Part shown: positions 6,967 through 35,094 of the stretch, in pieces
Position numbering within the stretch: the stretch's first letter is position 1
Layout: the number at the start of each line of letters is the position of its first letter
Source of the DNA: an uncultured Bacteroidales bacterium
Lineage (GTDB): Bacteria; Bacteroidota; Bacteroidia; Bacteroidales; Paludibacteraceae
Length of the DNA: 42,142 bases
Direction of reading: 5' to 3'
Assembly (NCBI GenBank): GCA_902784585.1
Contig: CACZVM010000015.1
Location: forward strand, 1-42,142
The notes under the pieces: generated by a model
Told to the model about the DNA's origin: nothing
Database searches by the model: none
Seen by the model: the letters and a program-made list of their open reading frames with translations, nothing else
Translations under genes and position numbers: made by a program

Positions 6967-7002
6967 CTGGAAGCTGAAGGCTGATGGCTGAGAGCTGATA
7001 GC
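6967..7002 (+). repeat. Heptamer repeat array, GCTGATG type
   Basis: Degenerate tandem units of about 7 nt built on GGCTGATG/GAGCTGA, directly upstream of rpsT. The same unit family is found in frame in birA, ldcA and murI. Confidence 0.6.
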
Positions 7003-7019
7003 AAAAAACAACAAACAAG

Positions 7020-7274
7020 ATGGCAAATCACAAATCATCTTTGAAGCGTATCCGCCAGACGGCCGCACGCAAAGAGCACAACCACTATTATGCAAAGACC
7101 GCACGCAACGCTGTGCGCGACCTGCGTAAGGCTACCGACAAAGCTGCAGCAGCTGCTGCTCTGCCCAAGGTAAGTTCGATGCTGGACAAGCTGGCTAAAC
7201 GTAACATCATCCACAACAACAAGGCTGCTAACCTCAAATCGAAGTTGGCTCGCATGGTGAATAAAATGGCCTAA
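7020..7274 (+). CDS. rpsT: 30S ribosomal protein S20
   Basis: An 84-aa, strongly basic, Ala/Lys-rich helical protein that binds 16S rRNA early in small-subunit assembly. The N-terminus [13 protein letters not shown] and the [15 protein letters not shown] end are diagnostic. The length is normal. A strong intrinsic terminator follows. No promoter of its own is visible between tRNA-Glu and this gene, so transcription probably comes from 6611-6642. Confidence 0.96.
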
Positions 7275-7302
7275 GTTGCTACGTTGGATATGCAAAACAG
7301 GG

Positions 7303-7331
7303 AAAAGTGACCGAAAAAGTCACTTTTTTTT
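7303..7331 (+). terminator. Intrinsic terminator of rpsT
   Basis: AAAAGTGAC (7303-7311) pairs with GTCACTTTT (7319-7327) around a 7-nt loop, followed by a run of T. Confidence 0.9.
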
Positions 7332-7360
7332 GTGTATATAAATATTTTTTACTACTTTTG
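7329..7360 (+). promoter_or_regulatory. Promoter of the AraC-type regulator
   Basis: TTTG at 7329-7332, 20 nt, then TACTTTTG at 7353-7360, 25 nt before the ATG at 7386. The -33 box overlaps the T tract of the rpsT terminator. Confidence 0.7.
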
Positions 7361-7385
7361 CGGCAAAATTAGTACAATTATTAAG

Positions 7386-32048: not shown

Positions 32049-32060
32049 AATTCAGAATTC

Positions 32061-32106
32061 TTAGCCCTAAAGGGCACGATTATTTGCAAAGCAAATCTTC
32101 ACAATT
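32061..32106. repeat. Two-hairpin element, copy upstream of uvrB
   Basis: 46 nt identical to 22044-22089, ending 7 nt before the uvrB ATG. Confidence 0.9.
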
Positions 32107-32113
32107 CACAATT

Positions 32114-34228
32114 ATGAATTTTGAATTATCCTCTCCCTACAAGCCTACGGGCGACCAGCCGCAAGCGATAGAGGCGCTGGTCAGCGGCCTGAACGCCGGC
32201 GCAGACGCGCAGGTGCTGCTCGGCGTGACCGGTAGCGGCAAGACCTTCACCGTGGCGAACGTGATTGCGCAGGTCAACCGGCCGACGCTCATCATGAGTC
32301 ACAACAAGACCCTCGCCGCGCAGCTCTACTCGGAGATGAAGGCCTTCTTCCCGCACAATGCGGTGGAGTACTTCGTGAGTTATTACGACTACTACCAGCC
32401 CGAGGCCTATATCCCGAGTACGGACCTATATATCGAGAAGGACCTGAGCATCAACGAGGAGATCGACCGTCTACGTCTGTCGGCTCTGGCGGCACTGCTG
32501 AGCGGACGAAAGGATGTGATCATCGTCTCGTCGGTCAGCTGCATCTATGGTCTCGGTAGCCCGCAGGACTTCACCGCCAACAGCATCCATATCGAGCGCG
32601 GTCAGCAGATAGCGATGGACGACCTGCTCAAACAGCTCGTGGCCGCCCAATACGTGCGCAATGACATAGAGTTGGCGCGCGGACGTTTCCGCGTGAAGGG
32701 CGACACGATTGACATCGCCCTGGCCTATGCCGACTATCTCCTGCGCGTGGAGTTCTTCGGCAACGAGATAGATGCTATCCTCACCGTGGATCCCATCAGC
32801 CTGCAACCCACAGAACAGTTCGAGCACTACAACCTCAGTCCTGCCACTATCTTCTGCACCTCAGCCGATCGCATTGCCGCGGCCAAAGAGCAGATCAAGA
32901 GGGACTTAAGTAAACAAATCGACTACTTTATCGACCTGGGCGAAGAGCTCTACGCCAAGCGCATCGAGGAGCGCGTCAAATACGATCTGGAGATGCTGGA
33001 CGAACTCGGCTACTGCTCGGGCGTGGAGAACTACAGCCGCTATTTCGACGGCCGCGAACCCGGCACACCGCCCTACTGCCTGCTGGATTATTTCCCCGAA
33101 GACATGCTGCTCGTCATCGACGAGAGTCACGTCACCGTGCCGCAGATACGCGGTATGTACGGTGGCGACAAGGCGCGCAAGGACAACCTCGTCACCTACG
33201 GTTTCCGCCTGCCCGCAGCACGCGACAACCGACCCCTCCGCTTCGATGAGTTCGAGCAGAAAGTAGGATTAACCAATCACCTGACGGTGTCCCCGTTAAA
33301 CGGGGAAACCCTAGACGGAAGGGGCACCAATGACCAATTACCAATCACCAATCACAAATCCACCATCTTTGTCTCTGCCACGCCGGACGAGTACGAACTG
33401 GAGCGCAGCGAAGGTATCGTCATCGACCAGTTGATCCGCCCGACGGGACTGCTCGACCCCGAGATAGAAGTGCGGCCTACGGAGAACCAGGTGGACGACC
33501 TGATGGAAGAGATACGCGTGCGTATCAGTCGTGGCGAACGCACGCTGGTGACGACACTCACCAAACGGATGGCGGAGGAGATGGACGAGTACCTCAGGCG
33601 CTATGGCATCAAGTCGGCCTATATCCACTCGGACATAGACACCATCGAACGCGTCAAGATCATGGAGGACCTGCGCAAAGGCGCATACGATGTGCTGGTG
33701 GGTGTCAACCTGCTGCGCGAAGGACTCGATCTGCCCGAAGTCAGTCTGGTGGCCATCCTCGATGCCGACAAGAGCGGTTTTCTGCGCGACCAGCGCAGTC
33801 TGACGCAGACCGTCGGTCGTGCGGCGCGACACGTGCACGGCAGGGCTATCCTCTACGGCGACCGCATCACACCGGCCATGCAGGCCACCATCGACGAGAC
33901 CAACCGACGCCGCACGATCCAGATGCGGTATAACGAAGAACATGGCATCACGCCAACCGCCATCCGCAAGGATATCAACACCTCTGCGTTGGCCGGACTC
34001 TACAAAGATCCGGAGGAAGAGAAACGCCGCCTCAGCGCAGCTATCCGGGAGGGATGGAAACATGCCGAATGGCAACGCATGGACGCCAAGGCGCTACAGA
34101 AAGCCATCGGCCAGAAACGCCGTCAGATGCTGGCGGCAGCCAAGGAGACCGACTTCGAGAAAGCCGCTTTCCTGCGCGACGAATGGATAGAGATGAACAA
34201 TCGCTTGCAGGCGATTGGGGATTTATAA
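32114..34228 (+). CDS. uvrB: Excinuclease ABC subunit B
   Basis: The damage-verification helicase of nucleotide excision repair, acting with UvrA and UvrC. The 704 aa contain the UvrB N-terminal signature (PYKPTGDQPQAI), Walker A GVTGSGKT (37-44), the beta-hairpin region YYDYYQPEAYIPSTDLYIEK, the DExx motif LLVIDESH, VGVNLLREGLDLPEV, QTVGRAARH and a C-terminal UVR motif (DFEKAAFLRDEWIEM) that binds UvrC. Residues about 386-416 are an insertion just before IFVSATPDEYEL, built from a palindrome-bearing element (33286-33328) and a CCAATCA array. The ATG at 32114 is chosen because upstream in-frame starts lie in the repeat element. Confidence 0.95.
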   Translation: MNFELSSPYKPTGDQPQAIEALVSGLNAGADAQVLLGVTGSGKTFTVANVIAQVNRPTLIMSHNKTLAAQLYSEMKAFFPHNAVEYFVSYYDYYQPEAYIPSTDLYIEKDLSINEEIDRLRLSALAALLSGRKDVIIVSSVSCIYGLGSPQDFTANSIHIERGQQIAMDDLLKQLVAAQYVRNDIELARGRFRVKGDTIDIALAYADYLLRVEFFGNEIDAILTVDPISLQPTEQFEHYNLSPATIFCTSADRIAAAKEQIKRDLSKQIDYFIDLGEELYAKRIEERVKYDLEMLDELGYCSGVENYSRYFDGREPGTPPYCLLDYFPEDMLLVIDESHVTVPQIRGMYGGDKARKDNLVTYGFRLPAARDNRPLRFDEFEQKVGLTNHLTVSPLNGETLDGRGTNDQLPITNHKSTIFVSATPDEYELERSEGIVIDQLIRPTGLLDPEIEVRPTENQVDDLMEEIRVRISRGERTLVTTLTKRMAEEMDEYLRRYGIKSAYIHSDIDTIERVKIMEDLRKGAYDVLVGVNLLREGLDLPEVSLVAILDADKSGFLRDQRSLTQTVGRAARHVHGRAILYGDRITPAMQATIDETNRRRTIQMRYNEEHGITPTAIRKDINTSALAGLYKDPEEEKRRLSAAIREGWKHAEWQRMDAKALQKAIGQKRRQMLAAAKETDFEKAAFLRDEWIEMNNRLQAIGDL
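33284..33362. repeat. Composite in-frame insertion in uvrB: palindrome plus heptamer array
   Basis: GGTGTCCCCGTTAAACGGGG carries the palindrome CCCCGTT-AAACGGGG. A segment ending GGGGCACC follows, then CAATGAC/CAATTAC/CAATCAC heptamers (33327-33362). It encodes TVSPLNGETLDGRGTNDQ and then LPITNHKS. Confidence 0.8.
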
Positions 34229-34236
34229 TTGGTGAT

Positions 34237-35094
34237 TTATAGGTCGATGTGCGCTGCACAGACAGACTGATCCAGAAAGAGGGATGCCGACTGCGCAAAA
34301 CGGTCGGCATTTTCTGTAGTCAGATAGCGGCACGAACCGCCATGAGAGAGTTGGTCGCGGTACTCGGGATGACGCTGCAGATAGTCCTTCAGGCTATCGG
34401 CCACGAGAGAACCTTGAGAGATGATCCGGATAGGCCTACTGCTGATGGATGATAGCTGACGGCTTATCTTTGCCGCAAGCAGCGGATAGTGCGTACAGCC
34501 GAGCACGAGCGTGTCGATCTCGGGATCCTTGCCGAGCAGTTCACGCAGGTACTTGTCCACGAAAAACTCCGCTCCGTCGCTCTCATGCTCACCCGCCTCG
34601 ATCAGCGGCACCCACATGGGGCAAGCTTGTTGGGTTACCTGTAACCCGTCACCCGTCTCCCGTAACCCTTCCGATATCTTCTCCAACTCGAGCACATAGG
34701 ACTCCGACGAGACGGTAGCCGGGGTGGCAAGGATTCCGACATGACCTGTTTGGCTGATGGCCGGCACGGCTTCCACCGTAGGACGGATCACGCCCAGGAC
34801 ATTGACCCTTCGGGATTGGTGATTTATCTTCGGCAGGTCGCGTTGCTGGATGGTGCGGAGGGCCTTGGCGGAAGCGGTGTTGCAGGCCAGGATGACGAGT
34901 GCGCAGTCCTGGCTGAGCAGATACTCCACAGCCTGAAGCGTATAGCGGTAGATGACGTCGAACGAATGGGTGCCATAGGGCGCACGCGCGTTGTCGCCTA
35001 AGTACAGGTAATCGTACTCCGGCAGCACACGGCGTATCTCGCTCAGGATAGTCAGTCCGCCGTATCCACTGTCAAAAACACCTATCTTTGCCAT
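34237..35094 (-). CDS. murI: Glutamate racemase
   Basis: Supplies D-glutamate for peptidoglycan. The 285 aa have GVFDSGYGGL (Asp8, Ser9), the two catalytic cysteines Cys71 (ACNTASAK) and Cys200 (GCTHYPLL), and LGDNARAPYG. Three short stretches look like repeat insertions: residues 89-96 (KINHQSRR; 34811-34826), 142-155 (SEGLRETGDGLQVT; 34630-34672, ACCCGTC heptamers) and 213-221 (QLSSISSR; 34437-34465, GCTGATG type). Catalytic and substrate loops are intact, so the enzyme is probably active. It has its own promoter just upstream. Confidence 0.94.
   Translation of the reverse strand: MAKIGVFDSGYGGLTILSEIRRVLPEYDYLYLGDNARAPYGTHSFDVIYRYTLQAVEYLLSQDCALVILACNTASAKALRTIQQRDLPKINHQSRRVNVLGVIRPTVEAVPAISQTGHVGILATPATVSSESYVLELEKISEGLRETGDGLQVTQQACPMWVPLIEAGEHESDGAEFFVDKYLRELLGKDPEIDTLVLGCTHYPLLAAKISRQLSSISSRPIRIISQGSLVADSLKDYLQRHPEYRDQLSHGGSCRYLTTENADRFAQSASLFLDQSVCAAHIDL
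34437..34465. repeat. In-frame GCTGATG-type array inside murI
   Basis: TACTGCTGATGGATGATAGC and then TGACGGCTTA: degenerate heptamers encoding RQLSSISSR on the minus strand. Confidence 0.6.
34630..34672. repeat. In-frame ACCCGTC array inside murI
   Basis: Tandem 7-nt units TAACCCG/TCACCCG/TCTCCCG/TAACCC; encodes GLRETGDGLQVT on the minus strand. Confidence 0.8.

What the first reader, a model, noticed from the sequence alone, without database searches (positions are those of the whole stretch)
6967..34826. Dense population of heptamer tandem repeats that enter conserved genes in frame
About twenty short arrays with a 7-nt (some 8-nt) period lie in this window. Sequence families include GATTGGT, AATTCAC, AATTAAA, GCTGATG, ACCCGTC, ACAGATG and TAGAGTT. 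Many fill intergenic gaps, but at least eight are in frame inside birA, ldcA (two), the C69 dipeptidase (two), glycogen synthase, miaA, uvrB and murI (three). Because 3 x 7 = 21 nt, the inserted peptides repeat every 7 residues (SPITNDQ in miaA, QFTMHNA in ldcA). The different unit sequences share period and behaviour, resembling the STRR repeats of heterocystous cyanobacteria. I know of no described system of in-frame heptamer insertion in Bacteroidales housekeeping genes.
Basis: partly seen in the sequence, partly recalled or inferred. Interest (0 to 1): 0.93.

Follow-up and report, generated by a model that had tools for sequence, protein, structure and literature searches.

The report
Mobile genes framed by heptamer repeats
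A tiny bacterial gene of a long-unexplained protein family travels between two mirror-image runs of a repeated 7- or 8-letter DNA word, and leftover runs of the same words appear to be what litters this genome, even inside essential genes.

Summary
The heptamer arrays are real, far above chance, and genome-wide. In-frame insertion holds for uvrB, miaA and the long ldcA array; the short ldcA array is no insertion. This is general. Inverted resemblance of 5' and 3' flanks beats all shuffles in 62 of 74 Bacteroidales S23 loci, 64 of 79 loci from 14 phylum-level groups and 11 of 12 cyanobacterial plasmid loci (control genes 2 of 38). The word differs from gene to gene, is usually shared by both arms, and is dispersed in its own genome and nearly absent from others (3 words, 14 genomes). 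Closely related plasmids with and without the element show S23 plus both arrays arriving as one unit of about 0.4-0.5 kb, mostly at gene junctions; decayed copies exist. Best reading: a minimal mobile element without a catalytic gene, akin to rRNA intervening sequences, whose derivatives and remnants are the dispersed heptamers and perhaps the cyanobacterial STRRs. That S23 itself drives movement is inferred; some relatives have arrays but no detected S23. I found no paper making this link.

The parts
30397..30780 (-). S23-A (my name): S23 / four helix bundle gene, ORF 127 aa from TTG; an ATG lies 18 nt further in
   Evidence: PF05635 87.3 bits, TIGR02436 101.1 bits, four-helix model like 2rld
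30764..30816 (.). 5' arm of the S23-A element, ATTGGTG array on the coding strand
   Evidence: inverted partner of the 3' arm (score 51, best of 100 shuffles 24)
30385..30416 (.). 3' arm of the S23-A element, ACCAATG array on the coding strand; it overlaps the end of S23-A and holds the start codon of miaA
12031..12591 (-). S23-D (my name): four helix bundle suffix-domain gene, weak S23 match
   Evidence: TIGR04258 59.5 bits, over its cut-off; PF05635 24.2 bits, below its cut-off
11986..12030 (.). 8-mer array at the 3' side of S23-D (ACTAGTTG type)
12609..12652 (.). 8-mer array at the 5' side of S23-D
   Evidence: the arms are not inverted by score (inv 14, shuffle maximum 25)
29797..29844 (.). 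ATTGGTG-family array in frame inside miaA (peptide SPITNDQ)
   Evidence: insert absent or shorter in 22 of 22 relatives' loci
33272..33361 (.). insert of about 30 codons in uvrB with an ATTGGTG-family array at 33325-33365
22624..22679 (.). AATTCAC-family array in frame inside ldcA
   Evidence: 10 aa longer than L319-L321
25980..26010 (.). ATTGGTG-family array inside the C69 dipeptidase gene
   Evidence: not compared with relatives
28214..28250 (.). degenerate ATTGGTG-family array in the glycogen synthase gene
   Evidence: not compared with relatives
9445..9498 (.). AATTAAA-family array between genes
   Evidence: word of the S23 gene in L002
21131..21175 (.). AATTCAA-family array between genes
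22013..22042 (.). AATTCAC-family array before ldcA
32098..32129 (.). AATTCAC-family array at the start of uvrB
19819..19943 (.). probable geneless inverted pair of 8-mer arrays (CATTTAYC and AAATGAAC types) between two genes
   Evidence: and by eye

Best explanation
The arrays are the ends, derivatives and remnants of a minimal mobile element: one S23 / four-helix-bundle gene (about 0.37 kb) between two inverted arrays of an element-specific 7- or 8-nt word, about 0.4-0.5 kb in all. SHOWN by comparison: the gene-plus-arrays unit is present or absent at given sites between related plasmids, mostly at gene junctions, with a few target bases found on both sides in some cases; both arms usually share a word; that word is dispersed in the same genome; some copies have decayed by internal deletion, leaving an array or a geneless pair. 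INFERRED: the Avd-fold S23 protein recognises the folded arrays (RNA or single-stranded DNA) and brings in a catalytic partner that the element does not encode (a host or other-element nuclease or reverse transcriptase); arrays then grow and shrink by slippage; selection removes most copies in genes and spares those in frame in tolerant loops, as in UvrB, MiaA and LdcA here.
For: Inverted flank resemblance above all shuffles: 62 of 74, 64 of 79, 11 of 12; controls 1 of 70 and 0 of 67 at score 30 or more in flanks 500 nt further out, and 2 of 38 control genes above shuffles. Word specificity: 414, 195 and 10 hits in the home genome against 0, 1 and 0 in the 13 others together. 57 of 91 own dispersed arrays fit resident S23 words, foreign quartets at most 33. 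Filled and empty sites at 6 of 8 compared places. Same S23 family at three sites, dN/dS 0.10-0.14. S23-A absent from all 14 same-genus miaA loci with kept neighbours. Avd fold.
Against: No catalytic gene, and no movement was observed. Three same-genus genomes with no detected S23 gene have 36, 7 and 4 hits of the ATTGGTG pattern. Within the genus only 11 of 31 S23 loci have arrays on both sides, 23 of 31 on at least one. 34 of 91 own arrays fit no resident word, and reversed decoys fit 37 of 91. Protein identity tracks the word only weakly (Mantel r 0.074, 17 of 999). Duplicated target bases are not uniform, and 2 of 8 places hold other sequence. S23-D's arms are not inverted by score. The S23 samples lean to high-scoring family members.
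Confidence: 0.75

Rival explanations
1. S23 elements home into existing inverted arrays; the arrays themselves are spread by another agent, such as a RAYT or other transposase.
For: Geneless inverted pairs exist (L066, L156, L173-L180); arrays occur in genomes without a detected S23 gene; a RAYT-like ORF lies in the window.
Against: Empty sites in sets 1, 5, 6 and 7 have no array at all before the element arrives; each S23 gene has its own word.
Confidence: 0.12
2. The arrays are regulatory RNA sites and S23 is a host RNA-binding regulator; nothing is mobile.
For: Avd fold; the S23-A transcript folds into a heptad-phased stem, z -7.85; many arrays sit near gene ends. PMC4679880 suggests translational regulation for TAACTGA repeats (abstract and passages seen).
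Against: Each S23 gene has its own word, several per genome; presence and absence between related plasmids; no G-U preference in arm differences, 13 against 20 A-C.
Confidence: 0.07
3. Plain slippage of chance sequences; the nearness of S23 genes is coincidence.
For: Array lengths vary (Trichormus and Scytonema inserts differ by 14 nt), and slippage can lengthen any array.
Against: Inverted matching arms in most S23 loci of three samples against few in controls; one word dispersed at many places of one genome only.
Confidence: 0.04
4. One reading: a dedicated system that inserts heptamers in frame into housekeeping genes.
For: uvrB, miaA and ldcA inserts.
Against: 25 of 94 arrays inside ORFs although ORF calls cover 91%; the short ldcA case fails.
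Confidence: 0.02

Closest known systems
rRNA intervening sequences (IVS) with an S23 ORF, e.g. that of Coxiella burnetii, PMC4990558 (passages seen, including parts of the abstract)
   Same: S23 ORF in a 428-nt element with complementary ends (a 28-bp stem) and three or four tandem heptamers before the S23 start; described as a selfish element, with older ideas that it was once mobile
   Different: IVSs lie in rRNA genes and are cut out of the RNA; here the elements lie between protein genes, have long arrays on both sides, and their word is dispersed through the genome
REP/REPIN repeats with RAYT transposases (recalled; PMC3116915 seen as listing only)
   Same: a gene family flanked by, and dispersed with, short repeats, often as inverted pairs between genes
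   Different: RAYTs are Y1 transposases and REPs single palindromes; S23 is a four-helix bundle and the ends are tandem arrays
STRR heptamers of heterocystous cyanobacteria (recalled) and the GGGGA(C/T)T arrays of Nostoc, PMC4692102 (passages seen)
   Same: tandem heptamers dispersed in cyanobacterial genomes; S23 genes on Nostocales plasmids carry arrays of similar kind
   Different: published without a gene partner; I did not test the published words next to a chromosomal S23 gene
Xanthomonas GGGAATC arrays, PMC4692102, and Beggiatoaceae TAACTGA arrays, PMC4679880 (passages and one section seen)
   Same: dispersed heptamers; in Xanthomonas 70 and 75 facing pairs in two genomes
   Different: explained there as G-quadruplex or translational signals; the terms XCC0516 and S23 do not occur in the first, four helix and S23 not in the second
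Avd of diversity-generating retroelements
   Same: same fold: 4dwl and DGR ribonucleoprotein chains, TM by query 0.60-0.76, Foldseek probability 0.98-1.00; a cyanobacterial S23 hits NF033474 at 29.8 bits, below its cut-off of 80
   Different: Foldseek E-values only 0.05-0.33 and 14-16% identity; no reverse transcriptase or template repeat seen beside the elements, but none was searched for

Membership tests
S23 / 23S rRNA IVP / four helix bundle protein (PF05635, TIGR02436) | profile match over the curated cut-off | tested here: met
   S23-A: PF05635 87.3 bits (cut-off 33.8), TIGR02436 101.1 (24). S23-D is below both cut-offs but over that of TIGR04258
S23 / 23S rRNA IVP / four helix bundle protein (PF05635, TIGR02436) | four-helix-bundle fold | tested here: met
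   AlphaFold2 pLDDT 93, best match 2rld
rRNA intervening sequence | S23 ORF between complementary ends | tested here: met
rRNA intervening sequence | lies inside an rRNA gene | tested here: not met
   S23-A lies between a 183-aa ORF and miaA; the plasmid elements lie between or at protein genes
rRNA intervening sequence | excised from RNA by RNase III | not testable with these tools
   needs RNA data
REP/RAYT system | Y1 (HUH) tyrosine transposase as the repeat-associated gene | tested here: not met
   S23-A matches only four-helix-bundle and PRK12275 models in NCBIfam; the RAYT-like ORF 37110-38489 scores 29.1 bits, below its cut-off of 80, and is not flanked by these elements
Diversity-generating retroelement | reverse transcriptase with template and variable repeats near the Avd gene | not tested
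   only 10 window proteins were scanned against Pfam; none of the annotated plasmid neighbours listed is named as one
STRR heptamers of cyanobacteria | dispersed tandem heptamers in heterocystous cyanobacteria | tested here: inconclusive
   heptamer arrays flank S23 genes on their plasmids; dispersal of those words in the chromosomes was not tested
Classical transposon or IS | encodes its transposase and makes a fixed-length target duplication | tested here: not met
   S23 is the only ORF of the Trichormus insert; shared bases vary: TAAT, TTCTA, ATG

The most novel reading that the evidence does not exclude
S23/Avd-fold proteins are the recognition part of a bacteria-wide class of mobile elements that carry no catalytic gene: inverted tandem heptamer or octamer arrays form a folded end, S23 binds it, and a borrowed polymerase or nuclease copies it to new sites. 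rRNA intervening sequences, the cyanobacterial STRRs, the Xanthomonas and Beggiatoa heptamers and this genome's arrays would be one phenomenon, with the Avd of retroelements a captured relative.
Probability: 0.5. Interest if true: 0.95.

Novelty: categorically new. Interest (0 to 1): 0.9.

Why it matters
It offers a testable source for heptamer repeats described in cyanobacteria, Xanthomonas, Beggiatoaceae and Bacteroidetes, a biological setting for the free-standing S23 / four-helix-bundle proteins (two solved structures, deposited as of unknown function or hypothetical), and a link to rRNA intervening sequences and to the Avd protein of retroelements. A mobile element whose ends are tandem arrays of an element-specific word, and which encodes no known catalytic enzyme, fits no mobile-element class that I know. 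It also shows repeat debris becoming protein loops, a start codon (miaA) and stop codons. If rRNA IVSs are counted as the kind, this is a new and far more widespread variant of it.

Tried and rejected
Considered and rejected or weakened: slippage alone; targeted in-frame insertion; the short ldcA array as insertion; RNA-stem conservation through G-U pairs (13 against 20 A-C); a tight protein-to-word code (weak overall, but pairs of 60% identity or more share words in 34% of cases against about 6% at 30-45%). Complementary differences between arms (29 against 13 other transversions) are mostly A opposite A (16 of 29); left open. Reversed decoys (37 of 91) are a poor control because family B is nearly symmetric, but they are a result against a clean assignment. 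murI could not be tested in the uvrB loci: only the own locus had a match.

Dropped before counts: L246, flank too short (79 of 80 used); 7 of the 45 miaA/uvrB loci (38 used); 4 of 74 loci for the far-flank comparison and 12 of 79; L282 and L285 of the 12 cyanobacterial loci were not given, which kept 83 of 163 elements. In one search, 28 loci plus 3 own loci were examined, of 54 matches listed. Of 25 plasmid records, 12 were fetched first. Both S23 samples are the better-scoring part of longer lists.
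Full report
1. The observation. The window is contig 15 of a 1.63-Mb, 79%-complete genome. TRF finds about 18 arrays of period 7/14/21 and four of period 8 in the stated range. In 442,142 nt of the own genome (20 evenly placed 20-kb stretches plus the window) a lag scan finds 94 arrays of period 7, 8, 14 or 16 and 28 of all other periods from 4 to 20; one dinucleotide shuffle gives none at 7/8/14/16. 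CCAATNACCAATNACCAAT has 144 overlapping hits in the genome, its reversed control one.

2. In-frame insertions. uvrB is about 30 aa longer than its closest relatives, and its peptide occurs in 0 of 21 spanning loci; miaA is 5-14 aa longer than the four closest, and ldcA 10 aa longer than the three closest. Some relatives carry other, sometimes heptamer-like, peptides in the same loops. The short ldcA array is no insertion: 17 of 19 homologues have the same length. murI is longer than solved racemases at two places, a distant comparison. birA, C69 and glycogen synthase were not tested. 25 of 94 arrays lie inside ORFs although crude ORF calls cover 91% of the DNA; of 15 family-A arrays inside ORFs, 14 are read on the stop-free strand (counted from the printed peptides). 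Selection on arrivals explains the in-frame cases.

3. The missed feature. Gene 30397-30780 is an S23 / 23S rRNA IVP / four-helix-bundle gene; gene 12031-12591 is a 'four helix bundle suffix' relative with a weak S23 match. The first lies between inverted ATTGGTG arrays, the second between 8-mer arrays whose arms are not inverted by score. The genome's other two S23 genes have inverted GGTTACC-type and AATTAAA-type arrays. Names S23-A and S23-D are mine. At the S23-A site all 14 same-genus miaA loci keep the upstream neighbour and have no S23 gene. G163 has there a geneless inverted array whose word fits an S23 gene elsewhere in that genome.

4. Generality. In 74 Bacteroidales S23 loci (34 from searches, 40 fetched; mostly high-scoring ones) the 5' flank resembles the reverse complement of the 3' flank above all 100 shuffles in 62, and with score 30 or more in 54, against 1 of 70 for flanks 500 nt further out. 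The best period is 7, 8, 14 or 16 in 57 and 56 of 74 flanks, against 6 of 144 far flanks. A scan of named genomes kept the 80 best of 590 candidates; 79 were usable, in 14 phylum-level groups by my labels from record titles. There 64 of 79 beat all 60 shuffles, 70 of 79 have an array on at least one side, far flanks score 0 of 67 and 7 of 146. The inverted signal is present in 11 of the 14 groups; the single loci of SAR324, Omnitrophota and Cyanobacteria fail it. On cyanobacterial plasmids 11 of 12 S23 loci beat all 100 shuffles. Control gene flanks (miaA, uvrB): 2 of 38 loci, arrays in 7 of 76 flanks. Of 153 elements 103 have arrays on both sides. AGT occurs at least twice in 62 of 123 5' arrays (ACT in 14) and in 57 of 117 reversed 3' arrays (ACT in 8), so the arms share a polarity. 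Of 163 elements given to, 83 have concordant words in both arms, 72 of 7 nt and 11 of 8 nt. Within the own genus the signal is weaker: arrays on both sides in 11 of 31 loci, on at least one in 23 of 31.

5. Word specificity. In a panel of 14 genomes the word at one S23 gene of G069 has 414 overlapping hits there and none in 13 others; that of G037 has 195, with 1 in G120 and none in 12; an 8-mer word of G094 has 10, eight of them in the element, and none in 13. In the own sample 57 of 91 dispersed arrays fit the four resident words; 500 random quartets of foreign S23 words fit a mean of 6.9 and at most 33; reversed decoys fit 37, mostly because the AT-rich word is nearly symmetric (that reason is my reading). 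Against the scheme: of six same-genus genomes with no detected S23 gene, three have 36, 7 and 4 hits of the ATTGGTG pattern, relics or missed genes in my reading; and 34 of 91 arrays have no resident partner.

6. Movement. Related cyanobacterial plasmids give filled and empty sites at 6 of 8 places compared. Set 1: Trichormus and Scytonema carry the element, Nostoc linckia and Tolypothrix (about 98% identical over the flanks) do not; the Trichormus insert is 428 nt with TAAT on both sides, Scytonema's is 14 nt (two words) shorter. Set 5: two Nostoc plasmids filled, a third empty, TTCTA on both sides of the ATCC 53789 insert. Set 6: ATG on both sides. Sets 3, 4 and 7 are filled/empty with differences at the joints; in set 3 the insert cuts the end of the upstream ORF. 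Sets 2 and 8 hold other sequence. The same S23 family (79-84% aa identity between sites, same TCAGRAG word) sits at three different places (sets 1, 3, 5); dN/dS between them is 0.10-0.14, and 0.86 for a 98%-identical pair with very few changes. At the set 1 place a Nostoc C052 plasmid keeps the 5' array and a piece of the S23 gene after an internal deletion; at the set 2 place a Nostoc ATCC 53789 plasmid has a geneless pair with the same left joint. Such decay would make the single arrays and geneless pairs seen here and in G069 and G037.

7. The protein. AlphaFold2 gives a four-helix bundle (pLDDT 93), closest to 2rld and 2gsc of the S23 family and, more weakly (E 0.05-0.33, probability 0.98-1.00), to Avd alone and in the DGR reverse-transcriptase complex. 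No catalytic site is known to me in this fold. The S23-A transcript would fold with the frame enclosed in a stem of six pairs and one mismatch per word (z -7.85, 0 of 100 shuffles), but arm differences show no G-U preference, so whether RNA or DNA is recognised is open.

8. What is known. PMC4990558 (passages, including parts of the abstract) describes one rRNA intervening sequence with an S23 ORF, a 28-bp terminal stem and tandem heptamers before the S23 start, and cites older ideas of mobility. PMC4692102 (passages) reports GGGAATC arrays in Xanthomonas, many as facing pairs, and related arrays in Nostoc. PMC4679880 (passages and one section) reports TAACTGA arrays in Beggiatoaceae, cyanobacteria and Bacteroidetes. 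The S23 terms I looked for did not occur in the last two. Nine searches of the open-access library listed no paper that ties S23 genes to dispersed heptamers; most subscription journals and preprints are not in it, and only the listings were seen for most papers. STRR history and REP/RAYT biology are recalled.

9. Verdict. That most S23 genes in these samples sit between inverted short-word arrays is close to certain; that gene and arrays arrive as a unit is strongly supported; that S23 is needed for movement, and that the dispersed arrays descend from such elements, are inferences.

Noticed in passing
window 22046 and 32063; L162:5847: A 38-nt sequence with two small hairpins (AGCCCTAAAGGGC... 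and ATTTGCAAAGCAAAT) occurs three times without a mismatch in 442 kb, each time joined to AATTCAC/AATTAAA arrays; perhaps a second small dispersed repeat that sits in the arrays.
   Followed up: partly
window 37110-38489: ORF with a weak match to REP-associated tyrosine transposase (NF047646, 29.1 bits, cut-off 80) and a 24-nt tandem repeat of 7.7 copies near its end.
   Followed up: partly
window 35409-35494: 33-nt tandem repeat, 2.6 copies, before the ORF at 35506.
   Followed up: no
window about 41808-41940: A stretch of about 45 nt with 8-mer words (ACTCTAGTAAACCAGTAGACTAGTAGACCATCAA) occurs twice 102 nt apart.
   Followed up: no
window 30819-30838: Perfect 20-nt palindrome TTCTGACGTGCACGTCAGAA directly beside the S23-A element, holding the stop codon of the upstream ORF (by eye).
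   Followed up: no
L156:1047-1163: Geneless inverted pair of 8-mer arrays with a 31-nt loop right after a stop codon.
   Followed up: no
L290, L296, L304, L305, L314: Several S23 genes of the same genus have 16-nt units of the type AGACCGCTNCGCTGAC instead of clear heptamers.
   Followed up: no
L279 and L284: S23 elements between cas6 and cas4 of CRISPR operons on Anabaena sp. 90 and Pseudanabaena galeata plasmids.
   Followed up: partly
PMC4476775 (listing and start of abstract only): The tRNA-Leu intron of lichen Nostoc has a stem-loop (P6b) with one of two repeat motifs of unresolved history; possibly another geneless inverted array.
   Followed up: no
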